Part shown: positions 5,953-25,382 of the stretch, piece after piece
Position numbering within the stretch: position 1 is the first letter of the stretch
How the letters are laid out: each line of letters begins with the position of its first letter
Source of the DNA: Parasphingorhabdus sp.
GTDB lineage: Bacteria; Pseudomonadota; Alphaproteobacteria; Sphingomonadales; Sphingomonadaceae
Assembly: GCA_030373505.1 (NCBI GenBank)
Contig: JAUCYS010000001.1
Span: forward strand, 1-64,000
DNA: 64,000 nucleotides
Direction of reading: 5' to 3'
The notes under the pieces: generated by a model
What the model saw: the letters and a program-made list of their open reading frames with translations, nothing else
Told to the model about the DNA's origin: nothing
The model's database searches: none
Position numbers and translations under genes: made by a program

Positions 5953-7047
5953 CTAATGCGCCGACTCCCATGACAGCCGCGGACCATAGCGTTGCCTCGG
6001 GAGGGTCGAATGGTCGGCCGGCCGGGCCTTTTGCTGGCGAATAAGCAGCAACGGGCATTTTGTATGTCCCGCAATATGTCTGGCGACATTGCCGCAGGAC
6101 ATATTGTGAATCGTGCCCTTTCCCCTGGCTGACATGACGATCAAGTCCGCCGCATGACTGTCGGCAAGCCCGAGCAAGCGCTCCCGGACGTCACCTTCCT
6201 TCTCCAAAACCGATCGCACGACAATACCGCCGCTGGTCAATCGAGACTGCAGGCGATCAAGATAGGCTCTGGCGTATTTTTCGTTGAATTGATTGAGTTT
6301 CATCACGAAATCATTGGCCTCCGCATCATCCAGGCCAGCCGCCACGATTTCGGGCTTGGGGATTACATGCGCCAGAAGCAGTTCGGCGCCATGTTTGCGC
6401 GCAATGCGCATCGCAAAAGGCAGCACGCTCTCGGCTCGCCATGATCCGTCGAGGGGAACGATAAGCCGCCGATAAACAATGTCCTCCTCCCCCTTCTTCC
6501 CGTCCGGGGGGATCAGCAGGAGCGAGGCGTCGGTGCGATCGAGCACCATCTGGGCGGTTCTGCCCAGCGCGAGGTCATTTGCCGAATGCCCGTTCTCCAG
6601 TCCGCACCGAGTCGTCATAGCAATCAGATTGTCGGCGTTTTCGCCGGTCCAGCGGGAGATTTCCTCGCCAGCGACGCCGTTGAGCAGAAGCTGGTCCTGC
6701 AGAACAAACGACCTGTTTTCGGGTTTCACGAGGCGCGACAGATAGTCCTGCGCCTCGCGCATCTTGATCTGCCATCCGATCGGATCGCTGGGGCTGAATT
6801 CGGCGGCCCAGCCCTGCAAAACATGAGCCGGTTTCACCGGAATGTCCAGACCGCTGGCCACGGCAACGGCATGACGGAACACATGGGCCGCGTCGCGGGA
6901 GTTGTCCAGGCATGCAACGGTGCTCCGGAAGGGGGCCGCGTCGCTATTGCTCTCCCTATAACCGGCGCGGGAATAGGCGCTGTTTTTCCTGAGTTTGGGA
7001 CGGGGTCCTGTGAAAGGCGGCTGAACAGGCGGCGACTTCGTATGCAT
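5953..7047 (-). CDS. Tandem-domain universal stress protein
   Basis: A 364-residue protein with two UspA-like domains, about residues 40-180 and 195-350. The second is the better conserved: it opens with RRLIVPLDGS and closes with SARGKGTIHN followed by GNVARHIAGHTKCPLLLI, which approximates the G-2x-G-9x-G(S/T) nucleotide-binding motif of ATP-binding USPs. The first domain looks degenerate at that site. I chose ATG 7047 because AGGA/GGAAG lies just upstream; the frame stays open another 27 codons. The role is inferred from the family: stress survival under energy or oxygen limitation. A perfect FNR/FixK box at 7115-7128 lies 68 bases upstream of this start, suitably placed for activation. 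It is followed at once by the glucan synthase. Confidence 0.88.
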   Translation of the reverse strand: MHTKSPPVQPPFTGPRPKLRKNSAYSRAGYRESNSDAAPFRSTVACLDNSRDAAHVFRHAVAVASGLDIPVKPAHVLQGWAAEFSPSDPIGWQIKMREAQDYLSRLVKPENRSFVLQDQLLLNGVAGEEISRWTGENADNLIAMTTRCGLENGHSANDLALGRTAQMVLDRTDASLLLIPPDGKKGEEDIVYRRLIVPLDGSWRAESVLPFAMRIARKHGAELLLAHVIPKPEIVAAGLDDAEANDFVMKLNQFNEKYARAYLDRLQSRLTSGGIVVRSVLEKEGDVRERLLGLADSHAADLIVMSARGKGTIHNMSCGNVARHIAGHTKCPLLLIRQQKARPADHSTLPRQRYGPRLSWESAH

Positions 7048-7114
7048 TTTTGGGTCCTTCCGAATCAAGGTCGACCCCCCAAGCTTCCTATATCGATTCG
7101 GCCTCCTTTCCGAA

Positions 7115-7128
7115 TTGATCAGGATCAA
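7115..7128 (-). promoter_or_regulatory. Perfect FNR/FixK-type operator
   Basis: TTGATCAGGATCAA is an exact match to the FNR consensus TTGAT-N4-ATCAA. It lies in the 135-base gap between the end of the Crp/Fnr gene and the start of the stress-protein gene. Its centre (7121.5) is about 74 bases from the stress-protein ATG. For a classical class II promoter (centre at -41.5) transcription would start near 7080, giving a leader of about 33 bases. The site strongly suggests FNR/FixK control of the stress-protein/glucan-synthase pair, possibly by the neighbouring regulator. Confidence 0.8.
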
Positions 7129-7182
7129 CTGGGGGCACGTTTTTTCTCGAGAAATCCGATGTTTGTGAGAAGACCAAGGACT

Positions 7183-7923
7183 TCAGAGACTGGGGCTATT
7201 TGCAAAATCATTCAGTCGTTTCCGATCAAGAATTTCGATTAGCTGATGGTTGCCGAAACGGTCCCGGGCGGCAATGACTCCGTCTTTCCGCAATTTTTTC
7301 ATCGTCCGGCTGCAGGTCTCTGGCGCGATGTCCAGATAGGTGGCGATATCCCGCTGGGTCATCGGCAAATCGATGATCGCCTTGTCGGTTCCGGCGGATC
7401 GCTTTTGCCGGGAGACTTGTCGCAGCAGAAAGGCCGCCAGTTTTGACACAGGGCTATGCAAGGTGAGCATGGCAATATGTTCCTGGGTCATTTCTTCCTG
7501 GGTCTCGAACCAGTGCAGTAGCTTGTCCCGGGCAGCCCGGTCCTCCAACAATTGCCGATAAAATCCGGTCCAACGGATCAGGCGCAGTCGGGTCGGGGTC
7601 AGGGTTTCCGCAGCGTAGCGATATTCTCTGTCGCCGGTCAGGCCGACAAGTTCACCCGTTGAGGGAAATCCGAGAATGATCTGCCTTCCGTCCTCGGTGA
7701 CCTGAGATAGTTTCAGCGTTCCGCTGATAATTTCAAACAGATATTCCGGCTTTCCACCTTGCCGGAAAATCGTGCGATCAGCGGCGACATCGCGGACCGT
7801 CCAATCATGACCTTCATGTGGCCATGGGAAGAGAGGGGATGAACCTTCGCCCCATGGATCCCCGAGCATGTTCCGTTCAGAACCAGCGGTTCCTGATCTC
7901 GGTTTTCTGGCCATATCGTTCAT
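7183..7923 (-). CDS. Crp/Fnr-family regulator, FixK-like, no Fe-S cysteines
   Basis: A 246-residue protein: a cyclic-nucleotide-binding-type beta-barrel about residues 40-150, a long dimer helix, and a winged helix-turn-helix about 170-235. The recognition helix reads APETCSRTMKKL and keeps the E-x-x-S-R pattern that in FNR reads TTGAT half-sites. The N-terminal cysteine cluster of true FNR is absent: the only cysteine in the protein is Cys204, inside the recognition helix. Bradyrhizobium FixK2 has a redox-sensitive cysteine close to DNA, so Cys204 is a candidate redox sensor here (inference). The start at 7923 directly follows the PEP synthase stop, so the two are probably one operon; ATG 7914 is an alternative start. 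It probably controls the island through the box at 7115-7128. Confidence 0.9.
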   Translation of the reverse strand: MNDMARKPRSGTAGSERNMLGDPWGEGSSPLFPWPHEGHDWTVRDVAADRTIFRQGGKPEYLFEIISGTLKLSQVTEDGRQIILGFPSTGELVGLTGDREYRYAAETLTPTRLRLIRWTGFYRQLLEDRAARDKLLHWFETQEEMTQEHIAMLTLHSPVSKLAAFLLRQVSRQKRSAGTDKAIIDLPMTQRDIATYLDIAPETCSRTMKKLRKDGVIAARDRFGNHQLIEILDRKRLNDFANSPSL

Positions 7924-10377
7924 TCAGGCATCGATCTGGGCTGTGCATCGATTGGCACGGGAAGGCGGACCCGGCTTTTGCGGCAGTTGGTGATTGATGG
8001 CGAGTTGCTGCATCACTCCGAGCACACTGTCCGGACTGAGACTGATACTGTCGATCTGCCTCGCAATCAGCCAGTTTGCAAATCCGGGGCGGTCGGAAGG
8101 CGCCTGTCCGCAAATCCCGCATTTCAATCCATGACGGTGGGCACCCGCAATGGCTTGCTCGATCATCGCCAAAACCGCCGGGTCTTCCTCTTCAAAGTCG
8201 GCAGCGAGTATTTCAGAATCCCGGTCCACACCCAGAACCAGCTGCGTCAGGTCATTGGAGCCGATCGAAAATCCGTCAAAGAGTTGAGCGAATTCGTCGA
8301 TCAGCACGACGTTGCTGGGAATTTCGCACATGATGTAAATTTCAAGACCATTCCGGCCCCGATCCAGGTCATTTTGGGCCATGACTTCCAATACCCGCCG
8401 CGCCTCCTCGATTCTCCGGCAGAAGGGAATCATCACGATAAGGTTCGACAATCCCATGTCATCGCGGACCCGCCGCAAGGCCTGACATTCGAGGGCGAAC
8501 GCGTCCCGATAGGCGGGATGGATATAGCGGGAGGCCCCGCGGAATCCGATCATCGGGTTATTCTCGGTCTCCTCAAAATCACCGCCGCCGAGCAGGGAGG
8601 CATATTCGTTCGATTTGAAATCGGACGTCCGAACGATCACGGGACGGGGATAGAAGGCAGCCGCAATTGTGGCGATTCCTTCGGCCAGGCGCGTGACAAA
8701 ATAGTCTGCGCCGCTTTCATAGCCGGACGTCAGCATCTCGATCTTCTTGCGAATCCGGCGGTCGCCGATCTGGTCCGGCAACAGCAATGCCATGGGATGC
8801 GCCCCGATTTCATTGGCAATGATGAACTCGGTGCGTGCCAGCCCGACACCGGCGACCGGCAAGGCGGCGACGCGGAAAGCGGCATTGGGATTGGCGATAT
8901 TGACCATCAGGTCGGTCTCGGTTTTCTCCAGTTCGCCGATATCAACAGTGTGCACGGAATAGGGAATGATCCCGCTCATCACGCGACCGGTCATGCCTTG
9001 CGAACAGTCAACCGTGACTTGCTCGCCCGTCGCGAGGAGCTGCGTGGCACCTGCCGCTCCGACGATTACGGGAATGCCCATTTCACGTGCGACAATGGCG
9101 GCATGGCATGTCCGTCCGCCATGCTCGGTGATGATCGCGGCCGATCGTTTCATCGCCGGTTCCCAGTCGGGCGTGGTCGCTGTCGCCACAAGGATATCTC
9201 CCGGTCCGACCGTTTCCAGTTCGCTGCTGTCTTTCACCAGCCGGACCGGACCGCTGCCGATGCGATCGCCGACAGCCTGTCCCTCAAGGATCACCTTGCC
9301 AGTGCCATCCAGCTGATATTGCGTCAGAAGATCACCATCGGCGGATGCGTGAATGGTTTCCGGGCGGGCCTGCACGATATACAGCGCCCCGTCGGGACCG
9401 TCTTTTGCCCATTCAATATCCATGGGCGTCGGCCGGCCATGCCGCTCGCTGTAATGGGCTTCAATCGCCACCGCCTGTTTCGCGAGCGTGATAATTTCAT
9501 CATCGGAAAGGCATGGGCGCATCTGTTCAGACCGGCGCACCTTTCGCCAGACGGTTGGCTCGTCCGCGCTGGCGGCGGCATAAACCAGTTTGACCTTCTT
9601 GCCGCCAATATGGTGCCGCAAAACATGTTCATGGCCCAGTTTCAGGGTTGGCTTGTGTACCAGAAATTCGTCCGGATCAACAAGCCCCTGGACAATCGCC
9701 TCGCCCAGTCCCCAGACCCCAGTGACCATCACGATGTCGCGATTTCCGCTTTCCGTATCCAGGGTAAAAATGACTCCGGATGATGCCCGGTCCGCGCGGA
9801 TCATCCGCTGGACCCCGACTGACAAGGCGACGTCCTTGTGGTCAAAGCCCTTGTTGATCCGGTAGGAAATCGCGCGCTGCGTGAACAGCGAGGCAAAGCA
9901 GCGCCGTATCGCCTCAACCAAGGCGTCGGCACCGCGTATGTTGAGGAAGGTCTCGTGCTGGCCGGCAAAAGAGGCGTCGGGCAGGTCTTCTGCTGTTGCA
10001 CTGCTGCGTACCGCCACCGCGACCTTGCGACCATGATCCTGACCGAGTTTTTGATAGGCCTGCCGGATTTCCGCGTCGAGAGCGGAGGGCAATGGTGCGG
10101 TTGTGACCATGGCGCGGAGCCGCCCGGACATTCGGGCAGCAGATTCCATATCGGACCAGTCCGTATCCTCCAGAATTTTCGCTATCCCCGGCCACAGGCC
10201 GTTGCTCTCCAGCAGATCGCGATAGGCTTCTGCGGTCACCGCGAAGCCCTCCGGGACCTTGATGTCGGTGGAAAGCGAGCCTGCCAACTCGCCCAGCGAG
10301 GCATTCTTCCCGCCGACAAGGGAAATATCGTCGAGCGTTACCCTATCGAGCCAGCGTATATAATCTTTCTCGGTCAT
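7924..10377 (-). CDS. ppsA: Phosphoenolpyruvate synthase (pyruvate, water dikinase)
   Basis: An 817-residue enzyme (E. coli PpsA 792) that makes PEP, AMP and phosphate from pyruvate, ATP and water, the entry to gluconeogenesis from three-carbon acids. Order: an ATP-binding domain beginning LVGGKNASLGEL, the phosphohistidine swivel domain with GGRTCHAAIV (catalytic His425), and the PEP/pyruvate-binding barrel ending CGICGQAPSDRP (catalytic Cys756). I chose ATG 10377 because GGAAA lies about 7 bases upstream and MTEKDYIRWLD fits the usual N-terminus; ATG 10404 is an in-frame alternative. It is followed without a gap by the Crp/Fnr gene and is divergent from the alcohol dehydrogenase. In this setting it could recycle pyruvate when respiration is limited. 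Confidence 0.93.
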   Translation of the reverse strand: MTEKDYIRWLDRVTLDDISLVGGKNASLGELAGSLSTDIKVPEGFAVTAEAYRDLLESNGLWPGIAKILEDTDWSDMESAARMSGRLRAMVTTAPLPSALDAEIRQAYQKLGQDHGRKVAVAVRSSATAEDLPDASFAGQHETFLNIRGADALVEAIRRCFASLFTQRAISYRINKGFDHKDVALSVGVQRMIRADRASSGVIFTLDTESGNRDIVMVTGVWGLGEAIVQGLVDPDEFLVHKPTLKLGHEHVLRHHIGGKKVKLVYAAASADEPTVWRKVRRSEQMRPCLSDDEIITLAKQAVAIEAHYSERHGRPTPMDIEWAKDGPDGALYIVQARPETIHASADGDLLTQYQLDGTGKVILEGQAVGDRIGSGPVRLVKDSSELETVGPGDILVATATTPDWEPAMKRSAAIITEHGGRTCHAAIVAREMGIPVIVGAAGATQLLATGEQVTVDCSQGMTGRVMSGIIPYSVHTVDIGELEKTETDLMVNIANPNAAFRVAALPVAGVGLARTEFIIANEIGAHPMALLLPDQIGDRRIRKKIEMLTSGYESGADYFVTRLAEGIATIAAAFYPRPVIVRTSDFKSNEYASLLGGGDFEETENNPMIGFRGASRYIHPAYRDAFALECQALRRVRDDMGLSNLIVMIPFCRRIEEARRVLEVMAQNDLDRGRNGLEIYIMCEIPSNVVLIDEFAQLFDGFSIGSNDLTQLVLGVDRDSEILAADFEEEDPAVLAMIEQAIAGAHRHGLKCGICGQAPSDRPGFANWLIARQIDSISLSPDSVLGVMQQLAINHQLPQKPGPPSRANRCTAQIDA

Positions 10378-10588
10378 ATGGTTTCCAAAGCTAGCCCCGG
10401 ACATCCCCCGATTTCAAAAAATAAAGTCGGCATTGACAGCAACCAGCCCTTGCACATCTCGCATCAACGGCTTGCGACTGTCTTTACGTAATGTTTCGGA
10501 GCGCCGCGGGTTGCAAACAGCCAGTGAACGGCAATACGGACCATTACGGATTTTTAGATGGAAGAATTGGAAGCATCATGAAGGCAAG

Positions 10589-11623
10589 ATGCAGGCCAGG
10601 CGGGAAACATATCATGCGATGCAGCTGGACGGCCCGGGACAGCCGCTGCGTCTGGTTGAACGCGATATGCCGGTGCCGGGCCCCAACGAGATATTGCTCA
10701 AAATTCTTGCCTGCGGCGTGTGCCGCACCGATCTTCATATTGCTGACGGCGAGATAGCAGAAGCCCGCTATCCCGTCGTTCCGGGGCACGAGATCGTTGG
10801 CCGGATCGTGGAGATGGGAGCCGACGTCTCGGGCTTCGCAGTCGGCCAGCGGATCGGGGTTCCCTGGCTGGGTTCCAGCTGCGGCCATTGTAGCTATTGT
10901 CTGGCCAGCCGGGAAAATCTCTGTGACGATCCCGAATTTACCGGCTGTACCCGGGATGGCGGATATGCCAGCCATGTCGTCGCGAGCGCCCAATATTGCT
11001 TCGCCATCCCGGAGCGCTTTTCCCATGCGGAAGCCGCGCCATTGCTGTGCGCCGGCCTGATCGGCTGGCGCTCGCTGCGAATGACCGGCGTGGCCAGGAC
11101 GCTGGGATTTTATGGCTTCGGGGCTGCCGCTCATATTCTCGCACAAATAGCGAAATGGCAGGGACGGGACATCTATGCCTTCACAAAGGCTGGTGATCGT
11201 AGCGGCCAAGCCTTTGCGCGGGAACTCGGCTGTACATGGGCTGGCGGTTCGGATGCGCCTGCGCCCGTCCCGCTCGACGCAGCGATCATTTTTGCACCGG
11301 TCGGGAAACTCGTTCCGGCCGCGCTCCGTTCGGTTCGCAAAGGCGGACGGGTGATCTGTGCGGGCATCCACATGAGCGATATTCCGGCCTTCCCTTACGC
11401 CGAGCTTTGGGGCGAACGGGCGATCATGTCTGTTGCGAACCTGACCCGGGCGGATGGCACCGAGTTTCTGGCCGCAGCCGACGCTTCGGGAATCCGGCCG
11501 ACGGTCGAGCGATTTCCGCTGGAGGAGGCCAATGCGGTGCTGGAAAGACAGCGTAGCGGACAATTGAACGGCGCAGCCGTTCTGCTTCCCGATTACCGGG
11601 TCGTCAGGCCTATATCGAGCTGA
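10589..11623 (+). CDS. Zinc-dependent alcohol dehydrogenase
   Basis: A 344-residue MDR-family oxidoreductase. Catalytic zinc ligands are seen in CGVCRTDLH and PGHE near the N-terminus; the structural zinc lobe is the four-cysteine stretch CGHCSYCLASRENLC. The NAD(P)-binding motif is GFYGFGAAAH, a slight variant of GxGxxG. ATG 10589 is chosen because AAGG lies 5 bases upstream; the frame is open a further 52 codons. It resembles the AdhA-like 'zinc-binding alcohol dehydrogenase' group; the substrate is unknown. It is divergent from ppsA, with a 211-base shared gap in which I saw no FNR box. Its 3' end overlaps the antiporter gene on the other strand by 14 bases. In the island context it could dispose of reducing equivalents. 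Confidence 0.9.
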   Translation: MQARRETYHAMQLDGPGQPLRLVERDMPVPGPNEILLKILACGVCRTDLHIADGEIAEARYPVVPGHEIVGRIVEMGADVSGFAVGQRIGVPWLGSSCGHCSYCLASRENLCDDPEFTGCTRDGGYASHVVASAQYCFAIPERFSHAEAAPLLCAGLIGWRSLRMTGVARTLGFYGFGAAAHILAQIAKWQGRDIYAFTKAGDRSGQAFARELGCTWAGGSDAPAPVPLDAAIIFAPVGKLVPAALRSVRKGGRVICAGIHMSDIPAFPYAELWGERAIMSVANLTRADGTEFLAAADASGIRPTVERFPLEEANAVLERQRSGQLNGAAVLLPDYRVVRPISS

Positions 11624-12653
11624 TGTAGATGATATAGATGTTCACCAGATAGACGGTGAAGAGGGTGATGCTTATCCATCCGACTGCGCGAAACAGTCTC
11701 GTTTGCGGGCGATATAGCAGTCCGATGATGACCACGCCGCTCATCACCATTGCCGCCATCGCCGTCGCTCCGTGGATTGGCGCCGCCGAGTCGAGCAGTG
11801 GACCATCAAGATACAGCCCGTCTTCGACGGCGAGTATCAATATGTTGAAAAGGTTGCTGCCGAGGAGGTTGGCAATCGCCATATTGACCGATCCCTGACG
11901 CAGAGCCGCCAGGGACACCGCGAGTTCCGGGAGAGATGTCGCGGCCGCGACAAATATTGTGCCGACAAAACCTCTGCCCATGCCCATCTGGTCTGCGATA
12001 GTGGCGCCAATCACAGGCAGCATCGATCCCCCGGCCAAAATCGCGACTGCCGCCACCAGCACCCACATTTGTGCCGTTGAAAGAGAGACCGCGGACGGTT
12101 CTTTAGCCACTTTCTGCGCGGTGCTGTCCTGTATCTTCGCTTCATAATTATAGATGGCCCGGGTCGCGACCACATAGAACAATATGATCATCAGGGAGGC
12201 TGCGCTGAAATGGCCGATCGCCGGGATGATGCCGAGGCCGCCGACCATCATGGACAGACCCGCGAACCCGATCAGCATGATGCCGAAGCCGGCAGACAAT
12301 ATATGTCCCTGACGCGCGCGGCGGTAGACCGATTCGCCGCGTACCGCAAAATCCAGCACCACCAGCATGACCAGATTGAAAACGCAGCTGCCAAAGACCG
12401 CCCCGACGGCTATCTGGGGAGCACGCGCGATGCTGACCGACGATATGCCGGCGGCCAGTTCCGGTAGCGAGGTGATCGAAGCCAAGAGAATCAGGCCGAT
12501 CCAGTCATCCGACAGCCCTTTTTTTGCAGCGATTATTTCGGCGTTCCGGGTGAGCCTGGGTCCAGCGGCCAGAATGAGCAGGGCGCAGGCACCGAACAGC
12601 AACCATTGAACGATCAGGCCAGTCAGCCCCGCATCAACGGGAAGGAAGGTCAA
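11610..12653 (-). CDS. Ca2+/Na+ (CaCA) family antiporter
   Basis: A 347-residue integral membrane protein with about ten hydrophobic segments. The two CaCA alpha repeats are plain: SITSLPELAAGISS followed by GSCVFNL, and ATSLPELAVSLAAL followed by GSNLFNI, giving the paired G/S/T-x-P-E signatures of sodium/calcium and calcium/proton exchangers. The start is TTG 12653, overlapping the TGA stop of the upstream P-type ATPase (TTGA), so translation is probably coupled. The frame continues upstream inside the ATPase, but no membrane-protein-like sequence is there. With the ATPase it forms a two-gene cation-handling unit, most likely Ca2+ or a related divalent ion; the exact ion cannot be read from sequence. 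Confidence 0.88.
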   Translation of the reverse strand: MTFLPVDAGLTGLIVQWLLFGACALLILAAGPRLTRNAEIIAAKKGLSDDWIGLILLASITSLPELAAGISSVSIARAPQIAVGAVFGSCVFNLVMLVVLDFAVRGESVYRRARQGHILSAGFGIMLIGFAGLSMMVGGLGIIPAIGHFSAASLMIILFYVVATRAIYNYEAKIQDSTAQKVAKEPSAVSLSTAQMWVLVAAVAILAGGSMLPVIGATIADQMGMGRGFVGTIFVAAATSLPELAVSLAALRQGSVNMAIANLLGSNLFNILILAVEDGLYLDGPLLDSAAPIHGATAMAAMVMSGVVIIGLLYRPQTRLFRAVGWISITLFTVYLVNIYIIYISSI

Positions 12654-15181
12654 TTGCGTGCCGATGAGCCAGTCTCCTGCAACAGCCGATTGACCAGCGG
12701 CTTGAGCAATTGCAGAACGAGCAGCAAAATGAAACCGTAGCCCAAGACGGCACCAATCTGGATGACGGAGAGTTTGGCAAAGCCCAGGATGGACCGGGCC
12801 GGTTCGAACAGATAGATGACCAGCATCACGATCATCACGCCACCCAATATTATCATCAGTGCCTTGTTTCGATAATCCAATAGCGACCGAAGCGAAGCGC
12901 TGCTGCTGCGATTGGCGAGAATCAGAGCCAGGAGACTGATGACCAAGGCGGAAAAGGCCAGCGCCCGCAGCTCCGGCACCGGCAGGTTTTGCTGAACGGC
13001 GATGATAATTCCCAGAGTCAGCGCGCCCATCGCCAACCCTCCCTGGAATATGCTCCACAGCACCATCGGAAGAGAGAATAGCCGTGCCTCGGGATGGCGT
13101 GGCCGGCGATGCATGATTTCGTCATCTTCCTCCTCGGCTTCAAAAACCAGCGCGCAAGCGGGATCGATGACCATCTCGAGCAGGGCGATATGGATGGGGC
13201 CAAGGAGCATCGGCAATCCGAACAGCAACGGCAGGAGCGCCAGTCCGGCAATCGGGACGTGGGCCGCAAAAATAAACTCCATCGCCTTGCGGATATTGTC
13301 ATAGATCCGGCGTCCCAGCCTGATCGCGCGGACGATGGCGCTGAATTCATCATCGAGGAGCACCAGCGCGGCCGCTTCCCGCGCGACATCTGTTCCCCGC
13401 TTGCCCATGGCAATGCCAACATGGGCGGCCTTGAGTGAGGGAGCGTCATTCACCCCGTCTCCGGTCATCGCGACCACCTCGCCATCGGCCTTCAGGGCCC
13501 GTACCAGGCGCAGCTTCTGTTCCGGCATGATGCGGGCAAAAATATTGGTCACGCGAAGCCTGTTGCCCAATTCTGTATCGTCCAGTGCGGCGATATCCTG
13601 TCCGGTCATCAAGCTGGTACTTTCGATCCCTGCATCCGCTGCGATGGATCTGGCGGTTGCGGCATGATCGCCGGTGATCATCACCACCCGGATACCGGCA
13701 TTGCGGCACTGGCGGATGGCTTCAGGAACACTGGGGCGCAGGGGATCGGCAAGTCCGATCAGCCCGGCAAACGCAAAGTCATGGTCAAGCAGGTCGGTGT
13801 AATCGTCAATCGCGCCAGCCCGGACGGTTGCCACACCGAGAACGCGCATTCCTCTTGCCGCCATCTGCTCCACCGCTTGCAGCATCTCGCTCTGCTCTGA
13901 CACCGACAGGCGGCATAGCCGCGCGATGGCTTCCGGTGCGCCCTTGGCTGCGAGTAGCCTCTCCGCTCCGGGTTCGCCGTCGTGCCACATGTTCGTCGTT
14001 GCGAGCAAATCGGGACGGATGCCAAAATGCCGTTCCAGTCGCCAATGCTGTTCGCCGCGGTTGTCCGGGAGCAGATCGGTCGCAGCCGTGTGAATCGCAA
14101 TATCCATCGGATCGGCGGGATCGATCTCGCTGGCCTGCTGGCTGGCCCTGAGCAAGGGTTGAAACACAGTCGGCAAGCCCTGGTTTCGTTCGACCGTGAG
14201 ATTCTGCCCGCCTGGCAGCCACAATGCGGCCACCGCCATATGGTTTTCGGTCAGGGTCCCCGTCTTGTCCGTGCACAATATGGTCACCGACCCCAGTGTT
14301 TCTATGGCCGCAGCCCGCCGGGTCAGGACATTGGCCTTGGATATCCGCCACGCGCCCATGGCCATGAACGTGACCAGCACCACCGGGAATTCCTCGGGCA
14401 GCATGGCCATCCCGATGGCGATGCCGGCGAGAAAGGCATCCAGCCAGCCACCGCGCAGAAAACCATAAGCCAAGGTCACCGAAGCAGCGATCAGGATTCC
14501 GCCGATGCCCGCCAGCTTGACGATCAGCCCGGTTTCCTTTCGCAAGCGCGGTGCGTCCGGCCGGATATTTGCGAGATGGCCGCCGATCTGGCCGATCTCG
14601 GTCCGTCCGCCAATCGCGACAACGCTGCCAACACCGGACCCGCGAACGACGAGGGTCCCCGAGAAGGCCATCGCTTCGGCCTGCTTGCCCACGGCAAGGG
14701 ATTCTCCGGTCAGCAGCGATTCATCAATCTCGAGCTCCGTGGCCGAGCACAGCTGGACATCAGCAGCGACGCGGTCCCCCTGTTCCAGTATGAGCATGTC
14801 GCCCACCACCACCTCGCGCCCCGGAATGCGTCGTCTTTCACCATTGCGGACGACCAGCGCGCGGGGACTCGACAGGTCCCGCAAGGCTGCCAGCACCCGC
14901 TCGCTGCGCGTTTCCTGAATGACCGAAATCGCGACGGAAAATGTGGCAAAAAGCAGCAGGATAGCGGCTTCCAGCCGGTCTCCGAGCAGCAGATAGACAA
15001 AGCCCGCCGCCAGCAACAGGGCAAGCATGGGTTCCCGCAAGACCTCGCCGATTATTCTGGCAAGCGAGCGCTGGTCGCGATGGGGTATTTCATTGGGGCC
15101 ATAGCGCGCTTGGCGCTCCCGGACCTGCTCATCGCCGAGCCCTGTTCGCCTGTCATCGACCGGTGCAGGAGCTACATCCAT
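12650..15181 (-). CDS. Cation-transporting P-type ATPase (P2-type, CtpF/PacL-like)
   Basis: An 843-residue ATP-driven cation pump. Seen: an N-terminal cation-ATPase domain, the actuator loop with LLTGESLAV, the membrane-4 motif AMLPEEFPVVL (PEEFP where Ca2+-ATPases usually have PEGLP), the phosphorylation site CTDKTGTLTE (Asp305), the hinge MTGDGVNDAPSLKAAHVGIAM, and a C-terminal six-helix cation domain. ATG 15181 is preceded by GGGGAA; a TTG at 15205 is an alternative. The PEEFP change leaves the ion open: Ca2+, Mg2+ or another cation. It overlaps the antiporter start (TTGA). An FNR-like box lies 27 bases upstream at 15208-15221. The mycobacterial DosR regulon contains a related pump, CtpF, beside a universal stress protein. 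Confidence 0.92.
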   Translation of the reverse strand: MDVAPAPVDDRRTGLGDEQVRERQARYGPNEIPHRDQRSLARIIGEVLREPMLALLLAAGFVYLLLGDRLEAAILLLFATFSVAISVIQETRSERVLAALRDLSSPRALVVRNGERRRIPGREVVVGDMLILEQGDRVAADVQLCSATELEIDESLLTGESLAVGKQAEAMAFSGTLVVRGSGVGSVVAIGGRTEIGQIGGHLANIRPDAPRLRKETGLIVKLAGIGGILIAASVTLAYGFLRGGWLDAFLAGIAIGMAMLPEEFPVVLVTFMAMGAWRISKANVLTRRAAAIETLGSVTILCTDKTGTLTENHMAVAALWLPGGQNLTVERNQGLPTVFQPLLRASQQASEIDPADPMDIAIHTAATDLLPDNRGEQHWRLERHFGIRPDLLATTNMWHDGEPGAERLLAAKGAPEAIARLCRLSVSEQSEMLQAVEQMAARGMRVLGVATVRAGAIDDYTDLLDHDFAFAGLIGLADPLRPSVPEAIRQCRNAGIRVVMITGDHAATARSIAADAGIESTSLMTGQDIAALDDTELGNRLRVTNIFARIMPEQKLRLVRALKADGEVVAMTGDGVNDAPSLKAAHVGIAMGKRGTDVAREAAALVLLDDEFSAIVRAIRLGRRIYDNIRKAMEFIFAAHVPIAGLALLPLLFGLPMLLGPIHIALLEMVIDPACALVFEAEEEDDEIMHRRPRHPEARLFSLPMVLWSIFQGGLAMGALTLGIIIAVQQNLPVPELRALAFSALVISLLALILANRSSSASLRSLLDYRNKALMIILGGVMIVMLVIYLFEPARSILGFAKLSVIQIGAVLGYGFILLLVLQLLKPLVNRLLQETGSSARN

Positions 15182-15207
15182 CCATGGTTCCCCGGAAAGG
15201 CACAATC

Positions 15208-15221
15208 TTGTTTCATATCAA
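15208..15221. promoter_or_regulatory. Near-perfect FNR/FixK-like operator in a divergent promoter region
   Basis: TTGTTTCATATCAA matches TTGAT-N4-ATCAA in nine of ten positions (T for A in the left arm). It lies in the 276-base gap between the P-type ATPase (minus) and the DUF2267 gene (plus). Its centre is only 33 bases from the ATPase start, too close for class II activation in that direction unless the ATPase start lies elsewhere. It could repress the pump, or activate the rightward DUF2267/esterase operon from a start near 15256. Confidence 0.5.
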
Positions 15222-15457
15222 TCTGTTGGTTCTCGAATTACCCGCTTCAAGGTCGAACGGGCATACGTAAACACCCGGAGATTCGCCGCCATGGACGGGT
15301 TGGAACGACACTACGTATAATCCACGACTGCGGGCGCGAGCGATATGAGCTAACAGCAGATCACCACGCGAATTGGTTGGCGCTTGTCGGTACCACGCAT
15401 CATTTGACGGTCCGCAAGCGGCAATGCTGCTTTTGAATCGACGCAAGGATGCGAAAG

Positions 15458-15883: not shown

Positions 15884-15889
15884 AAGCCG

Positions 15890-17233: not shown

Positions 17234-17242
17234 GGAAAAACC

Positions 17243-17896: not shown

Positions 17897-17910
17897 CGAG
17901 GAGAGGGCAT

Positions 17911-18567: not shown

Positions 18568-18726
18568 CAAGCGCTCGTCTGCGCTTCGGTCGCTGTCGTT
18601 TCGCAATGATCAGCGGGCAATATTATTCCGTAACAATACCTATCGTTCCGGTTCCGCGGTCAACCTACAATGCCCGTTACAGTAGAACCATCAAGGTGAT
18701 CCGTTCTCGAAGATGAGGAGCGAGGC

Positions 18727-19170
18727 ATGCTGTTGCGCAAAGAAAGTCTTGTCGTAGCCGTTGACGGCACCAGAATGTCGATCTTCCGCAATATTGGCGA
18801 CGCTTTTGATCCGGAACTCAAACTTATCGAAGAATATCGCAGTCCGACCCGCAAGACTTCGGAACTGGGCACCGACAGACCCGGGCGGACCTTCCAGAGC
18901 AAGTCACTTCGCCGCGCCGCGCATGAACCGACGGATTTTCAGCAGCAGGAAGAGGACAATTTTGTCATCGCGGCTGTCAGGAAGATTGAAGAGATCGCAT
19001 CTGAAAGTCGCGAGGACCTTGTGCTCGTCGCAGCGCCCCGTGCGCTGGGACTGATCCGCAAAAATCTGAGTCCTGCAACCAGTGCCCAGCTGCTGGCGGA
19101 AATTCCAAAGGATTTTGGTGCCGATGATGCGGAGCCGCTCGCGAGAATGCTGGCAAAATACCAAGGCTGA
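18727..19170 (+). CDS. Host-attachment (AtsE-like) family protein
   Basis: A 147-residue protein matching the host attachment family: early [13 protein letters not shown], then [27 protein letters not shown], then [18 protein letters not shown] and a C-terminal [17 protein letters not shown]. The family name comes from an Agrobacterium plant-attachment locus, but the molecular function is unknown, and the fold recalls release-factor or nuclease-like stress proteins rather than an adhesin. GAGGAGCGAGG precedes the ATG. The stop overlaps the next ATG (TGATG), so it is coupled to the ABC exporter. A 159-base gap separates it from the phosphoribosyltransferase. Confidence 0.85.
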
Positions 19171-19907
19171 TGGCCGGGCCAGCACTCTCTCGTTCTCCCC
19201 AAGATGAAAGCCTGTACATTATTCGCGGGTTGACCAAGGTCTACGGCGAAGGGCCCACCGCAGTGCACGCGCTGCGGGGAATCGATCTCGAACTGCCCCG
19301 ATCGGCGATGGTCGTCTTGCTGGGGGCCAGCGGTTCGGGCAAATCCACCTTTCTCAACATCGTTGGCGGCCTGGATGAAGCGACGGATGGAGAGGTGTTT
19401 TTCGAAGGCCAGGAACTGACTGCGTTCGGCCCCGCCGAACTTACCGAATATCGCCGAAACTCAGTCAGTTTTGTGTTTCAATTCTACAATCTGGTGGCAT
19501 CGCTCACCGCCCGCGAAAATGTCTCGCTGATTACCGAGATTGCGGATGACCCGATGACACCCGAAGAGGCACTGGCGCTTGTCGGGCTGGAGAAGCGGAT
19601 CGATCATTTCCCGTCGCAGCTGTCCGGCGGCGAGCAGCAAAGGGTCGCCATTGCCCGCGCGATAGCCAAGCGGCCCAAGGTGATGTTCTGCGACGAGCCG
19701 ACCGGAGCGCTGGACAGCCAGACCGGCGTGATCGTTCTCGATGCGCTGGATCAGGTCAATCGCGAGCTTGGTACAACCACCCTGCTGATCACGCATAATG
19801 TTGTCATCGCCGATATGGCTGACCGGCTGCTACGCTTTGCTGACGGGGAGCTGGTCGAAGACCGCGACAATCCGCACCGCGTGGCGCCGTCGGAGCTGAG
19901 ATGGTAA
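19170..19907 (+). CDS. ABC transporter ATP-binding protein (MacB/LolD type)
   Basis: A 245-residue ABC ATPase. Walker A is GASGSGKST (52-60), the signature [15 protein letters not shown] about 150, Walker B with [13 protein letters not shown] about 170, and the H-loop LLITHN. The type is that paired with FtsX/MacB permeases, which work by mechanotransmission rather than by carrying substrate through a channel. ATG 19170 overlaps the preceding stop (TGATG), and the stop overlaps the permease start by 7 bases, so expression of the four genes from 18727 is probably coupled. Confidence 0.93.
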
Positions 19908-22288
19908 GGCTGCCTGCCTGGCTCGGTGCGCTCGACCGCAAGCTGCTCCGGGATATCTGGAGGCTGCGGTCGCAGGCTTTCGCCATCGCGCTGGTGATCG
20001 CGGCGGGTATCGGCATGGTGGTCATGTCGTTCGGGATGATCCGGTCGCTGGAGGCCACTCGCGATGCCTATTACGACCGGTATCGTTTTGCCGACATATT
20101 TGCCTCCGCCAGACGGTTTTCCGAAAGCCTGGTCAATGATGTCCAGTCGCTTGACGGCGTCAGCATTGCGGAGGGGCGGCTGACCAGCAATGGCACGCTG
20201 GATATTCCTGGCATAGCGGAGCCGATCACTACGCGCATTCACTCGCTCCCGCGGGTCGGCGGGATGCCACGTGTCAATGCACTGGTCCTGCGTAGCGGCA
20301 GGTTACCCAATCCCGTCCGTCCCGACGAGGTGCTAGCGAGCGAGAAATTTGCCGATGCCGCGCGTATCGGTCTCGGCGATACGATCGAGGTGTTGCTCTA
20401 TGGCAAGAAGCAGCGCCTGAGGGTGGTCGGCACGGCACTGTCTCCGGAATATGTTTATGCCATTGGTCCTGGCCAGATCTTTCCGGACAATCGACGGTTC
20501 GGGGTGCTGTGGATGGGGGAAGAACATCTCGCCGCTGCCCTGAATTCGAGTAATGCCTATAACGAGGTGCTTATTCGCCTCGAACACGGCGCCGTCGCTC
20601 CTGAGGTCGTACGCCGGGTCGATAACCTGCTGGAACGCTATGGTGGCCGTGGAGCAGCCCCCCGAAGCGACCAGATTTCCGACCGTTTTCTCGAAAACGA
20701 ACTGTCCCAGCTTGGTCAAATGACCGCGATCCTGCCACCGATATTTCTCGGCGTTGCTGCGTTCCTGATCAATATGGTCCTGTCTCGCCTGGTCGAATCA
20801 GAACGCGAGATTATCGGTTTGCTGACTGCCTTTGGCTACCGCAACAGGGCGATCATGTGGCATTATGCCAAGCTCGCGCTGGTGCTGTCCTTGCCGGGAC
20901 TGGTCTTGGGCCTGATCCTCGGCTCGTGGATGGGCCGGGGGCTGGCCGGCCTCTACCAGGAATTTTTTGTATTTCCGTTTCTGACCTATCGCGCAGGATC
21001 GGATGTCTTTCTGATATCCTGCCTGATTACGATTACCGTCGTTCTGATCGGGGCGGCACAGACGGTCAGGCGGATCGGCAGGCTGAAAGCCGCGGAAGCG
21101 ATGCGCCCGCCCGTACCGCCCAATTATTCCGGTGGGATCGCCCGCCTGATCGGAAAAATCCGGAAACTCGACGAGCCGACCCGGATCATCCTGCGCGGGC
21201 TGGTCCGTCGGCCGCTGCGGTCGATGCTGGGGTCGTTTGGCGTCGCTGCCGCCCTGGGGCTCTATGTGGCGTCGGCGGGATCGATGGACAATGTCGGGAT
21301 GATGACCGATCTGCTGTTCCATCAGGCCAATCGCGCCGACATAAGTGTTTCCTTTGCCGAGCCGCGCGATGAACGGGTGCTTTTTGAACTGGAGCGGTTG
21401 CCCGGAGTCATGCGCGTGGAGCCGGTGTGCTATATTGCTGCCACCTTGTCGGCGGGCCATCGATCGCGGTCGGAGAGCCTGACCGGCATGAAGCGTGATA
21501 GCGATCTCAACCGGCTGGTCGACATCGACGATGGTCTGGTGCAGCCGCCGGTAAAAGGCCTGATGCTCTCGACAATATTGGCAAAGCAGCTCGCTGTTGC
21601 ACCGGGCGACCGGGTCGAGGTCAATATAACGGAAGGGCGGCGACCCCATCTGACACTGCCCGTCAGAAGCATTTTGAAAAGCCCGGTCGGCAATCCTGCC
21701 TATGTCGATTTCGCAAGCCTTGGCCCACTCATGCGGGAAACACCGCTGGCGTCCGGCGCCTATCTCAGCGTGGATCCGGACCAAGCCGATGCGCTGTACC
21801 GCAAGCTGAAGGCGATGCCGATCATTGCCGGATTTTCCCAGCGTGCTGCGGCCCTCAACGGCATTGACGAGACGGTTGGCGAAACCATGGGCATTGTGAC
21901 CCTGTTCAATACGGCCTTTTCCGCGCTCATCGTCTTTGGCGTGGTATATAATAATGCCCGCATCAGTCTCGCCGAGCGGGCGCGCGATCTGGTTTCGCTT
22001 CGTGTGCTCGGTTATCAGCGCTCCGAAGTCTCCTATATCCTGCTGGGAGAGCTAGCCCTGATTGTCATCGCCAGTCTCCCATTGGGTGCGCTGTTCGGTT
22101 ACTATCTGTCTCAATATCTCGCATCCTCGATGAGTGGAGATTTGTTTGTCATGCCCTTTGCCCTGTCAACTGCGACGATTGCCTTTGCCATATTGCTGGT
22201 GCTGATGACCGCTGCGGTTTCTTCCCTGTTTGTCAGCAGCCGTTTGAACCGGCTGGATCTGGTCAGCGTGTTGAAGACCAGGGAATGA
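19901..22288 (+). CDS. ABC transporter permease with two FtsX-like domains
   Basis: A 795-residue membrane protein with eight or so predicted membrane segments: one near residue 30, a group about 285-400, one about 445, and a group about 660-780. This is the duplicated FtsX/MacB-core layout of large permeases such as YbbP, with long extracytoplasmic loops between. It starts inside the end of the ATPase gene and its TGA overlaps the adaptor start (ATGA). Substrate is not readable; relatives move lipids, lipoproteins, peptides or other envelope material. The presence of a dedicated adaptor points to export across the periplasm rather than lipoprotein release. Confidence 0.9.
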
Positions 22289-23511
22289 CGAACAGAAAGC
22301 GCCATCTGTCCCGGCCGGGGCCCAGAATCATCCTCGGCCTGATCGCTGCGGTCGTGATCGCCGCAGTCTATTTGGCGTTGCGCACGCCGCCGATGGATGT
22401 GGACGTCGCCAAGGCGGTGAAAGCCCCGCTGCTTGTCACGATTGATGACGAGGGCGAGACCCGGGTACGCGATATATATACGGTCGCGGCTCCGATCAGC
22501 GGGGAGTTGCAGAGGATCGATCTGGAGCCGGGGGATCCGGTGGTTGCCGGCCAGACCGTGATCGCGCGGATCCTGCCCGCCCAACCCGATTTTCTGGATC
22601 CGCGCAGCGAATCGGAAACCCGCGCCCAGATCCGGGCCCTGGAAGCGAGCGTTGAATCGGCGATAGCAAGGATCGTTCAGGCGCAGGCCGACAGTCAGCT
22701 GTCGGCCGCAGATTTTGAGCGTACGGCGGCGCTCTATAAACGCGGATTTGCAACCCGGGCCGCGTATGACGGTGCACGCGCAGCGCGGGATAGCAGTGTT
22801 GCCCGGCTGGAGGAAGCCAGGGGCGCACGGGAGAATGCCCGGTTTGAGTTGCGCGCAGCCAGAGCGCGGCTGATGCCGCCTTCGAGCGTGAAATCGGGGG
22901 GCAAGGCGCTTGCTATCCGCTCACCCGAAAGCGGGTCGGTGCTTCGTCTGGTACAGGAAAGCGAAACCATGATCGCCGCTGGATCGACGATCATGGAGCT
23001 CGGCAATCCGAAGGACATCGAGATTGTCACCGATCTGCTGTCCAGCGATGCGGTCAAAATCAGGGCCGGCAGCGAGGTGCTGATCGATCATTGGGGAGGG
23101 GACAAGCCTCTGAAGGGCAGGGTCCGGCGGATCGAACCTTATGGGTTCACCAAGGTCTCGGCGCTGGGCGTGGAAGAGCAGCGGGTGAATGTCATCATCG
23201 ATCTGGTCGATCCGCTGGCTGCCCGCAAGAATCTCGGTCACGGCTACCGGGTGATCGTCCGGGTGGTGGAATGGTCGGGAGAAAATATTCTGCAGGTTCC
23301 GATCAGCGCCCTGTTCCGCGACAAGGGCCAGTGGTCGGTCTTCGTCATGCAGGATGGCAGGGCGCAGCTGGTGCCCGTCAGGGTCGGACGGATGAATGAC
23401 AAACGGGCACAGATCGTGGAAGGCCTGAAGGCCGGAGCATCGGTTATCCTCCACCCGAGCGAAAAGATCGACGACGGTGTCGCGGTCAGGTTGCGGGCCG
23501 GGGTTTCGTGA
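22285..23511 (+). CDS. HlyD/MacA-type periplasmic adaptor subunit
   Basis: A 408-residue protein with one N-terminal membrane anchor (about 14-32) and a periplasmic body: biotinyl-lipoyl halves (ISGELQRIDLEPGDPVVAGQ and RSPESGSVLRLV), a coiled-coil hairpin about 105-195 rich in A, R and E, a beta-barrel, and a membrane-proximal domain. It completes the ABC exporter and presumably docks to a TolC-like channel, which is not encoded in the window. Its ATG overlaps the permease stop. The last 26 bases overlap the end of the GNAT gene on the other strand. Confidence 0.9.
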   Translation: MTNRKRHLSRPGPRIILGLIAAVVIAAVYLALRTPPMDVDVAKAVKAPLLVTIDDEGETRVRDIYTVAAPISGELQRIDLEPGDPVVAGQTVIARILPAQPDFLDPRSESETRAQIRALEASVESAIARIVQAQADSQLSAADFERTAALYKRGFATRAAYDGARAARDSSVARLEEARGARENARFELRAARARLMPPSSVKSGGKALAIRSPESGSVLRLVQESETMIAAGSTIMELGNPKDIEIVTDLLSSDAVKIRAGSEVLIDHWGGDKPLKGRVRRIEPYGFTKVSALGVEEQRVNVIIDLVDPLAARKNLGHGYRVIVRVVEWSGENILQVPISALFRDKGQWSVFVMQDGRAQLVPVRVGRMNDKRAQIVEGLKAGASVILHPSEKIDDGVAVRLRAGVS

Positions 23512-24082
23512 GATCAAATTCGAGCAGCATCAGCGAGGGGTCGCCTGGATAGCTTTTGGCCGAGAAACCCATTTCCTTTTCCAGCGTGATCGCTGCGTGA
23601 TGGGAGCGGCTTTCAATCGACTGGAGCTTCTGGATTCCGTTGCGCCGGGCTTCGTCAATCACATATTCCAGGAACGTCCAGCTCATCCCGCGATGCTTGT
23701 AGTCACTGCGTACCACGATCGCGACTTCGGCTTCCGATTTGTCTTCGCTGGCGCCGATCATGGCGCTGGCGATGATCGTCTTGTCATCGATATCCAGGGC
23801 AATATAGTCTTCCTTGTGATCATGATCGACGTCGATCAGATCTTCGAGCAGGGAATCCCGGACTTCCGGTATCGGTGACAGGAAGCGGAACCGCAGATCG
23901 TCCCGCGATACATGGCGAAAGAAATCCGCCAGCGCTTCCTTGTCGGCAGGCTCGACCGGCCGGACATGGAATTCAAAACCCGACCGCGTGGTCAGCGGAA
24001 TGCTGTGGCTGACGATCAGATCATGGCCTGAATCGGCGGCTGCTTGATCGGGGGCCGGATCCGTGTGTTTCGCATCGGACAT
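23486..24082 (-). CDS. GNAT-family N-acetyltransferase
   Basis: A 198-residue protein with a GNAT domain from about residue 35: VRPVEPADKEALADFFRHVS, then VAIVVRSDYKHRGMSWTFLEYVIDEAR, where R-x-x-x-x-G is a variant of the acetyl-CoA pyrophosphate loop, and a C-terminal AITLEKEMGFS strand. It resembles the acetyltransferase module of bacterial protein lysine acetyltransferases (Pat-like), but no cyclic-nucleotide or CoA-ligase domain is attached. ATG 24082 is chosen for the AGGA about 9 bases upstream; ATG/GTG 24121 is an alternative. It is divergent from the D-lactate dehydrogenase gene. The substrate is unknown. Confidence 0.85.
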   Translation of the reverse strand: MSDAKHTDPAPDQAAADSGHDLIVSHSIPLTTRSGFEFHVRPVEPADKEALADFFRHVSRDDLRFRFLSPIPEVRDSLLEDLIDVDHDHKEDYIALDIDDKTIIASAMIGASEDKSEAEVAIVVRSDYKHRGMSWTFLEYVIDEARRNGIQKLQSIESRSHHAAITLEKEMGFSAKSYPGDPSLMLLEFDLTKPRPAT

Positions 24083-24359
24083 GGGAGAAAATCCTTTAGT
24101 TGGAACTGTTTTTGGAACCACGCCATCCTAGAAACGGGCATGATCGTTGCTATCCGTAATGATCCCTAGGCAGCTCATGATGAGCCTGGAGATCGGCAGT
24201 TTTTTTGATATTGTCTGTCATCTTGGAGAACAGAGCGACGATATATCGCGTCGAATAAGGGAATTTCCCGATTGCGGGCATGGAGGGCCGGCCGATAGAA
24301 TTTTCACTCATAGCAGTACCCATGTCTTCGGCGACGATCGCGACGGCAAGGACAGGATG

Positions 24360-25382
24360 ATGGATGTTTCGGTTTTCAGCACCAGGCCATATGATCGCAG
24401 ATTTCTGACGGCCGCCAATGCCGCCGGCGCTCACAGGCTCAATTTTCTGGAAGCCCGGCTTACGGTCGACACCGCCAAGCTTGCAGCAGGCAGCCAGGCT
24501 GTCTGTGTATTTGTGAACGATCTGCTGGATGCCGATATATTAAGGATGCTTGCCGATATCGGCGTCCGCCTGGTGGCGCTGCGCTGCGCCGGTTTCAACC
24601 GCGTCGATCTGAGAGAAGCGGCGAGGCTCGGGATCCATGTCGTCCGCGTGCCGGCCTATTCGCCGCACGCGGTCGCCGAACATGCCATGGCCCTGATGCT
24701 GAGCCTGATCCGGAATATTCATCGGGCCTATAATCGGGTCCGGGAGGGGAATTTCACTCTCGACGGACTGCTCGGTTTCGATCTCTCCGGAAAAAGCGTT
24801 GGCATTGTCGGGACCGGGAAAATTGGCACGGTGATGGCTCGGATATTGACCGGTTTCGGCTGCCGGGTGCTGGCATTCAATCCTGTCAGAAATGCCAAAT
24901 GCCTCCAAATGGGTGTGGAATATGCCGATTTTGACGAGATGGTTTCCGCCGCTGATATCATCACGCTCCATTGTCCCCTGACTCCACAAACCCGGCATCT
25001 GATCGGCGCCGGGAGCATCAGCCGGATGAAACCCGGCGTTGTCCTGATCAATACCAGCCGAGGGGCGGTTATCGATACACGTGCGGTTATCGCCGGGCTG
25101 AAATCCGGTCATTTCGGGGGCATTGGGCTGGATGTATATGAGGAGGAGGGGGATCTGTTTTTTGAAGATCTGTCCGAACACCCCATTCAGGATGATGTGT
25201 TTGCCCGCTTGCTGACCTTTCCCAATGTACTGATTACAGGTCATCAGGGATTTTTCACTGTCGAGGCGCTGGGCGCGATCGCAGCGACCACGATCAGCAA
25301 TATCGCAACCTTCGAGAATACGGGAAAGCTGGTGAACGAAGTGACGCTGGATATGTTGTATCCGGCTGCCGATGCCAGCTAG
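24360..25382 (+). CDS. ldhA: D-lactate dehydrogenase-type 2-hydroxyacid dehydrogenase
   Basis: A 340-residue NAD-dependent D-2-hydroxyacid dehydrogenase. The N-terminus [14 protein letters not shown] and the [13 protein letters not shown] and [16 protein letters not shown] blocks are those of fermentative D-LDH (LdhA) rather than SerA-type enzymes. The NAD loop is GIVGTGKIG; catalytic residues lie in [10 protein letters not shown] (Arg), LDVYEEE (Glu) and GHQGFFT (His). Likely reaction: pyruvate plus NADH to D-lactate, which would regenerate NAD+ without oxygen. ATG 24360 or the adjacent ATG 24357 both sit behind AAGGA; the frame is open a further 70 codons. A 25-base hairpin at 25419 follows. 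Confidence 0.9.

What the first reader, a model, noticed from the sequence alone, without database searches (positions are those of the whole stretch)
5953..25382. A DosR-like survival island under a FixK-type regulator
Seen: Crp/Fnr regulator, tandem stress protein, PEP synthase, Zn-alcohol dehydrogenase, Ca-type antiporter, P-type ATPase, DUF2267, erythromycin-esterase-like, dienelactone-hydrolase-like, phosphoribosyltransferase, host-attachment protein, ABC exporter, GNAT and D-lactate dehydrogenase within 20 kb. Known: the mycobacterial DosR dormancy regulon has stress proteins (Rv1996), CtpF (Rv1997), and phosphoribosyltransferase fusions with dienelactone hydrolase (Rv0571c) and erythromycin esterase (Rv2030c). 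Inference: a proteobacterial counterpart built from the same parts but with FNR/FixK control in place of DosRS.
Basis: partly seen in the sequence, partly recalled or inferred. Interest (0 to 1): 0.78.

Follow-up and report, generated by a model that had tools for sequence, protein, structure and literature searches.

The report
Low-oxygen survival island in a sphingomonad
A 19-kb block of stress genes in an uncultured sphingomonad resembles genes that mycobacteria use to survive without oxygen, and three of its neighbouring genes occur in other bacteria as one joined protein, which suggests that together they make a single enzyme of unknown function.

Summary
The gene list is right: Pfam supports the genes named at 5953-25382 in a Sphingomonadaceae MAG. 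The reading "DosR-like island under FixK-type control" is partly supported.

For it: FNR-type boxes lie upstream of 16 of 41 relatives' Ere/hydrolase/PRT modules and 0 of 13 solo Ere genes. Usp and Crp/Fnr genes each lie near Ere in 6 of 14 whole genomes (expected 0.67 and 0.77). The regulator is FixK-like without Fe-S cysteines. In this window only the usp box is well supported.

Best new point: Ere, hydrolase and PRT occur fused, in pairs in Rhodococcus and all three in Rhizobium and Palleronia, so they probably form one enzyme unit. Rv2030c of the DosR regulon is a PRT-Ere protein in print (PMC4410610).

Unexpected: 13 of 16 island regulators carry a cysteine in the DNA-recognition helix, against 0 of 41 distant ones.

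Not new: low-oxygen loci compared with DosR are known in Burkholderia (lxa) and Streptomyces (Osd). Expression could not be tested. New variant of a known kind.

The parts
5953..7047 (-). tandem universal stress protein; ORF listed to TTG 7128, probable ATG 7047
   Evidence: Pfam PF00582, two stretches, E 2e-31
7115..7128 (.). FNR/FixK-type box TTGATCAGGATCAA upstream of usp
   Evidence: exact match; 0.1 expected in the window; half-sites kept in L009 as TTGACTCTGGTCAA at the same place
7183..7923 (-). Crp/Fnr-family regulator, FixK-like, no Fe-S cysteines, cysteine in recognition helix (ETCSR)
   Evidence: Pfam; translation; FixK2 4i2o E 4e-17
7924..10404 (-). PEP synthase (ppsA)
   Evidence: Pfam; NCBIfam over cut-off
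10589..11623 (+). Zn alcohol dehydrogenase (ORF from 10433; probable start 10589)
   Evidence: Pfam; TIGR02822 over cut-off
11610..12610 (-). Na/Ca-exchanger family antiporter, start approximate
   Evidence: Pfam PF01699; coverage in relatives
12650..15205 (-). type II cation P-type ATPase
   Evidence: Pfam; below the NCBIfam subtype cut-offs
15208..15221 (.). weak FNR-type site TTGTTTCATATCAA in the ATPase/DUF2267 divergent gap
   Evidence: one mismatch; not conserved in L009
15449..15883 (+). DUF2267 protein, likely first gene of the operon
   Evidence: Pfam; 6-bp gap to eres
15890..17233 (+). eres: erythromycin-esterase-family protein (Ere)
   Evidence: Pfam PF05139 E 5e-134; nearest solved 2qgm
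17243..17896 (+). alpha/beta hydrolase
   Evidence: Pfam PF12146 over cut-off
17893..18567 (+). phosphoribosyltransferase (PRT)
   Evidence: Pfam PF00156; solved relative TT1426 1wd5 E 1e-43
18727..19170 (+). Host_attach / baeRF12 protein
   Evidence: Pfam
19170..23511 (+). ABC ATPase, FtsX permease, HlyD adaptor (overlapping genes)
   Evidence: Pfam
23486..24121 (-). GNAT acetyltransferase
   Evidence: Pfam
24147..25382 (+). D-2-hydroxyacid dehydrogenase
   Evidence: Pfam

Best explanation
This is an accessory island for surviving low oxygen or energy starvation. A local FixK-like regulator probably activates at least usp through an FNR-type box; in relatives such boxes sit upstream of the Ere/hydrolase/PRT operon. 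The three operon proteins most likely act as one unit, a phosphoribosyltransferase joined to two hydrolase activities, perhaps salvaging or repairing damaged or nucleotide-derived metabolites in cells that do not grow. PEP synthase, alcohol dehydrogenase, cation pumps and Usp would adjust carbon, redox and ion balance. Shown: gene content, co-occurrence, boxes, fusions. Inferred: induction by low oxygen, complex formation. The chemistry is a guess.
For: Co-occurrence. Boxes upstream of 16 of 41 linked modules, 0 of 13 solo Ere; 45 loci together hold 6 exact sites (0.2 expected) and 37 with one mismatch (13.8 expected). Footprinted usp box. FixK-like regulator. Fusions PRT-Ere, PRT-hydrolase and PRT-hydrolase-Ere. 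Published low-oxygen induction of the same gene families in Bradyrhizobium (PMC6515984) and Sphingopyxis uspA as Fnr target (PMC7713065).
Against: No expression data. The window's own Ere has no box in the 600 bp upstream; the 15208 site is not conserved; L009 has an exact box between pps and adh that the window lacks. 25 of 41 linked modules have no box. Stress genes near linked modules were found in 30 of 42, so 12 of 42 have none of those queried (short loci included). The regulator's signal is unknown.
Confidence: 0.6

Rival explanations
1. A general stress or stationary-phase accessory island gathered by horizontal transfer, whose genes answer several signals; FNR-type control is limited to usp.
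For: Sporadic spread: 25 of 147 Sphingomonadales genomes match, 19 strongly, the window's own included; gene order is shuffled between relatives; relatives lie on plasmids; one supported box in the window.
Against: Boxes upstream of the module head in 16 of 41 relatives and the local regulator argue for an oxygen- or redox-linked signal.
Confidence: 0.3
2. An antibiotic-resistance and export cassette: the esterase destroys and the ABC-FtsX-HlyD pump exports a macrolide-like compound.
For: Ere family name; the same exporter lies downstream of the trio in L011, L037 and L099.
Against: Matches to the EreA, EreB and EreD models are far below cut-off (19 to 55 bits against 750 to 800); nearer to 'succinoglycan biosynthesis' structures than to EreC; fused to PRT, hydrolase or PCMT elsewhere.
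Confidence: 0.03

Closest known systems
DosR/DevR dormancy regulon of Mycobacterium tuberculosis
   Same: Usp, P-type ATPase and PRT-linked Ere and hydrolase functions. Rv2030c is PRT plus erythromycin esterase, in an operon with Usp, PfkB and HspX (PMC4410610 passages). Regulon blocks as listed in PMC5309233 (passages).
   Different: In the window the three functions are separate genes; no HspX, nitroreductase or two-component gene among the ORFs scanned; FixK-like regulator instead of DosR. M. tuberculosis sequences were not compared.
OsdR regulon of Streptomyces coelicolor
   Same: Usp, a zinc-type alcohol dehydrogenase (SCO0199), pyruvate phosphate dikinase (SCO0208) and a Crp-like protein (SCO0168) together (PMC5069765 passages).
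   Different: OsdKR control; dikinase rather than PEP synthase by name; compared by annotation only.
Burkholderia cenocepacia low-oxygen-activated (lxa) locus
   Same: 50-gene block with six Usp, induced by low oxygen, compared with DosR in print and tentatively tied to a FixK homologue (PMC6127331 passages).
   Different: Sequences not fetched or compared; the words erythromycin and phosphoribosyl do not occur in the main text of that paper.
Bradyrhizobium diazoefficiens FixK2 / microoxic regulon
   Same: Usp, host attachment, CBS, PCMT, PEP synthase, PfkB-type kinase and alcohol dehydrogenase are among products higher in microoxia (PMC6515984 passages); ppsA is named a direct FixK2 target (PMC9104804 passages).
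   Different: FixLJ-FixK2 cascade; whether the PCMT bll4651 is a PCMT-Ere fusion was not checked.

Membership tests
DosR regulon | control by DosR with DosS/DosT | tested here: not met
   no two-component gene among the 20 window ORFs scanned; a FixK-like regulator is present. DosR boxes were not searched.
DosR regulon | PRT-Ere (Rv2030c) and PRT-hydrolase (Rv0571c) as fused proteins | tested here: not met
   three separate adjacent genes; fused forms exist in Rhodococcus, Rhizobium and Palleronia
DosR regulon | Usp and alpha-crystallin (HspX) members | tested here: inconclusive
   tandem Usp present; no Hsp20 among the ORFs scanned, but Hsp20 near 9 of 42 linked modules in relatives
DosR regulon | induction by hypoxia | not testable with these tools
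   needs expression data
FNR/FixK regulon | FNR-class regulator | tested here: met
   Crp_2 HTH with ET-SR helix, FixK2 nearest solved relative, no Fe-S cysteines; NCBIfam FixK and FnrL models match far below cut-off
FNR/FixK regulon | TTGAY-N4-RTCAA box at the promoters | tested here: inconclusive
   met for usp with a footprint; not for the window's Ere operon; 16 of 41 relatives' modules
FNR/FixK regulon | low-oxygen, regulator-dependent expression | not testable with these tools
   needs expression data
Burkholderia lxa locus | orthologous low-oxygen-induced block with several Usp | not tested
   lxa sequences were not fetched; one tandem Usp gene in the window

The most novel reading that the evidence does not exclude
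Ere, hydrolase and PRT form one three-part enzyme that is a shared core of low-oxygen survival programmes in Actinomycetota and Alphaproteobacteria (seen as an operon, as two partial fusions and as a full fusion). The islands also carry their own mostly Fe-S-free regulators, which sense redox by a cysteine placed directly in the DNA-recognition helix (ETVCR or ETCSR), gained in more than one lineage.
Probability: 0.2. Interest if true: 0.75.

Novelty: new variant of a known kind. Interest (0 to 1): 0.5.

Why it matters
Rv2030c and Rv0571c of the tuberculosis dormancy regulon are listed as not yet characterised (PMC5309233 passages). An operon with the same parts in harmless cultured sphingomonads, and a fused form in Rhizobium and Palleronia, would let their chemistry be studied without a pathogen. 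The recognition-helix cysteine is a simple, testable idea of how FNR relatives without an Fe-S cluster might sense redox.

Tried and rejected
FNR regulon of the host genome: 12 sites against 3 for the reversed pattern. ORFs beside sites in ten fetched regions, read by eye, showed no coherent anaerobic regulon, so this was dropped.

PRT fused to Ere as the reason for the long Ere frames in G056, G135, G120 and G057: rejected; Pfam shows PCMT (protein-L-isoaspartate methyltransferase) fused to Ere.

The window regulator as the only FNR-class helix in its genome: not claimed. Of seven further own hits with loci, five could be aligned, and one very divergent one (L059) reads ETGSR.

Recognition-helix cysteine as a general mark of FixK-like regulators: rejected; 11 Fe-S-less class-wide relatives read ETVSR. 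Nor is it confined to Ere islands: two such regulators are in genome G150, one in a Usp-rich cluster (L274), one with none of the queried genes near it (L275).

Stress genes near regulators: 6 of 10 Fe-S-less ETVSR regulators, 2 of 20 verified Fe-S ones. L287, pooled with the Fe-S set, was not checked for type and has a Usp nearby.

tRNA-Thr as an insertion site: the right-flank gene was searched in 79 family genomes, but empty sites were not analysed.

Tropicibacter 'PRT in ppsA': PRT overlaps the end of ppsA slightly and is not fused. Sinorhizobium fredii 'PRT in hydrolase': adjacent, PRT match incomplete.

Biases and dropped rows. One search used 14 of the 19 strong genomes (dropped: the own genome and four PCMT-fused), merged Usp hits within one gene by hand, took only over-cut-off Crp hits, and assumed uniform placement. 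In one search several of the queries came from the Ere loci themselves, which favours those loci, and L053 was dropped. In one search two linked and two solo loci with under 300 bp upstream were dropped; the one N-extended locus with a box (L050) in fact has a PRT-hydrolase frame on the other strand. Distant regulators came from 40 of 70 over-cut-off hits plus own-genome hits; four of 47 could not be recovered, and the helix of one (L152) did not align.
Full report
WHERE IT IS. The window lies in a 3.13-Mb MAG, 88% complete. The closest records found are uncultured Sphingomonadaceae and Sphingorhabdus. The block runs from usp (5953) to a D-2-hydroxyacid dehydrogenase (25382). To its left is a GH94-type protein (3-5949), to its right a tRNA-Thr (25737-25812).

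OBSERVATION. By spacing there are two likely plus-strand operons: DUF2267-Ere-hydrolase-PRT (gaps of 6 and 9 bp, then a 4-bp overlap) and host_attach-ABC-FtsX-HlyD. Motifs recalled as active-site marks are intact in the translations: DDGIATG in PRT, GEATHG and AHNSH in Ere, GASTG in the hydrolase. Motif matches anywhere in a locus: Ere pair in 41 of 42 linked loci and 16 of 20 other Ere loci; PRT loop in 37 of 42 and hydrolase motif in 30 of 42 linked loci (several loci are cut short).

CO-OCCURRENCE. The one genome-contig scan gave 45 loci. Among these, 18 whole-genome stretches and the window, 43 of 64 have PRT and/or the hydrolase beside Ere. The order is mostly Ere-hydrolase-PRT; hydrolase-PRT-Ere, PRT-Ere and PRT-hydrolase-Ere also occur. 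In Sphingomonadales 25 of 147 genomes have any Ere match and 19 a strong one, the own genome included, so the trait is accessory. In 14 of these genomes Usp lies within 20 kb of Ere in 6 (expected 0.67, P 2e-5) and Crp/Fnr in 6 (expected 0.77, P 5e-5), assuming uniform placement. At least one of 14 stress families lies near 30 of 42 linked modules, 8 of 20 other Ere genes and 3 of 21 FnrN-type control genes; at least two near 26, 3 and 0 (biases are told in Tried and rejected). A striking relative is Sphingobium sp. TKS plasmid pTK1, typed conjugative: BON, Usp, PAS kinase, response regulators, Ere-hydrolase-PRT, PfkB, CBS, PRPP synthase, a thymidine-phosphorylase family protein, ppsA, P-type ATPase and Crp/Fnr within 31 kb.

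REGULATION. The window's Crp/Fnr protein has one cysteine, in the recognition helix. Its best solved relative is FixK2 (4i2o, E 4e-17). One exact FNR-type box (7115-7128) is centred about 74 bp upstream of the probable usp ATG; 0.1 exact sites are expected in the window, and 5 sites with at most one mismatch were seen against 2.1 expected. L009 has TTGACTCTGGTCAA at the same place, with half-sites kept and spacer changed. This fits the Sphingopyxis granuli Fnr consensus TTGAc/t-N4-g/aTCAA, where a uspA is listed as an Fnr target (PMC7713065 passages). The 45 loci hold 6 exact sites and 37 with one mismatch, against 0.2 and 13.8 in shuffles; five permuted patterns gave 1 to 8 sites each. Boxes within 600 bp upstream of the module head occur in 16 of 41 linked modules with at least 300 bp of upstream sequence, 0 of 13 solo Ere and 1 of 6 N-extended Ere. 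The window's own Ere is among those without a box. The weak site at 15208 is not conserved in L009, and L009 has an exact box between pps and adh that the window lacks. Control of the whole window island by this regulator is therefore an inference.

RECOGNITION-HELIX CYSTEINE. Of 16 regulators (the window's and 15 recovered near Ere in the fetched loci, within about 15 kb), 13 read ETVCR, ETICR, ESICR, ETTCR or ETCSR; L024, L049 and L121 do not. Two regulators 11-13 kb from Ere have none, and 0 of 41 distant ones have it, 18 of these with an FNR-class pentad (L025 and L029 are near copies). Thirty class-wide FNR homologues, the best matches given as loci, all read ETVSR or ETTSR with an Fe-S motif. 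A second class-wide set, overlapping the first, gave 48 distinct sequences with the window's: 44 ETVSR (11 without Fe-S motif) and four with the cysteine, namely the window, L244 (the same gene as island L106) and two in G150. One of those two lies among several Usp genes, MBL, PRPP synthase and an ADH 60% identical to the window's; the other has none of the queried genes nearby. Twelve of the 13 island Cys-helix regulators lack the Fe-S motif; L052 has both. Island regulators fall into several tree lineages (label 'island', not 'Cys'); L052 sits among Fe-S FnrN proteins whose nearest rows read ETTSR, so the cysteine looks gained more than once. In FixK2 a different cysteine, C183 near the DNA, lowers binding when oxidised (PMC9104804 passages). 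A thiol switch here is a hypothesis; altered DNA specificity is the rival.

FUSIONS. The Ere protein of Rhodococcus oxybenzonivorans pRB98 and of Rhodococcus sp. DK180 pDK2 is a 682-aa PRT-Ere fusion. Rhodococcus sp. DK17 pDK1 has a 450-aa PRT-hydrolase fusion beside Hsp20, CBS and Usp genes. Rhizobium sp. NLR16a p1 has an 881-aa PRT-hydrolase-Ere protein (48, 58 and 56% identity to the window's three), in a region with ppsA, BON, a Crp/Fnr gene (ETVSR), Zn-ADH (59%) and Usp. Palleronia pontilimi has an 895-aa frame with the same three parts, and a Lysobacter frame holds PRT and hydrolase (BLAST only). In rhizobia and some sphingomonads Ere is fused to PCMT instead (rhizobial cases by annotation). 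Fusion in different combinations plus kept adjacency is classical evidence for joint function. Rv2030c is described as PRT plus erythromycin esterase in a hypoxia-induced operon (PMC4410610 passages). No M. tuberculosis sequence was compared.

WHAT IS KNOWN. DosR-like low-oxygen loci are known outside mycobacteria: Osd in Streptomyces, lxa in Burkholderia, already compared with DosR and tentatively tied to a FixK homologue, and the microoxic set of Bradyrhizobium with Usp, host attachment, CBS, PCMT and PEP synthase. Predicted alphaproteobacterial FNR and FixK regulons include Usp and a zinc alcohol dehydrogenase (PMC2908626 passages). Five searches listed no paper that, by title or abstract start, treats this trio outside mycobacteria; one search listed 30 of 897. 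Papers were seen as listings and passages only.

VERDICT. The kind is known. The three-part enzyme and the recognition-helix cysteine are what a specialist would want to follow.

Noticed in passing
L108, L109, L110, L111; L123:11332-13308: Ere fused to protein-L-isoaspartate methyltransferase in other sphingomonads (Pfam) and, by annotation, in rhizobia; a possible hint at a repair role.
   Followed up: partly
window 7183-7923 and regulators of L009, L010, L015, L019, L020, L025, L029, L052, L106, L112, L114, L116: Cysteine in the recognition helix of island-linked Crp/Fnr regulators.
   Followed up: yes
L274 (G150:C8:525900-545800): Cluster of several Usp genes, MBL, PRPP synthase, thymidine-phosphorylase-like and ADH genes around a Cys-helix regulator, without Ere.
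   Followed up: partly
L275 (G150:C13:318900-338800): Second Cys-helix regulator of G150 with four FNR-type sites nearby but none of the queried stress genes.
   Followed up: no
window 25737-25812: tRNA-Thr at the right edge of the block, a possible integration site.
   Followed up: partly
L304:9649-12633: Tropicibacter oceani plasmid: a PRT relative, not annotated there because it meets the record end, directly follows ppsA with a CBS gene nearby.
   Followed up: no
window 26041-32266: 451-aa ORF without a Pfam match, matched in 70 of 79 family genomes, followed by a 1558-aa ORF that was not scanned.
   Followed up: partly
L121 (Sphingobium sp. TKS plasmid pTK1, 335601-366893): A larger counterpart of the island on a plasmid typed as conjugative.
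   Followed up: partly
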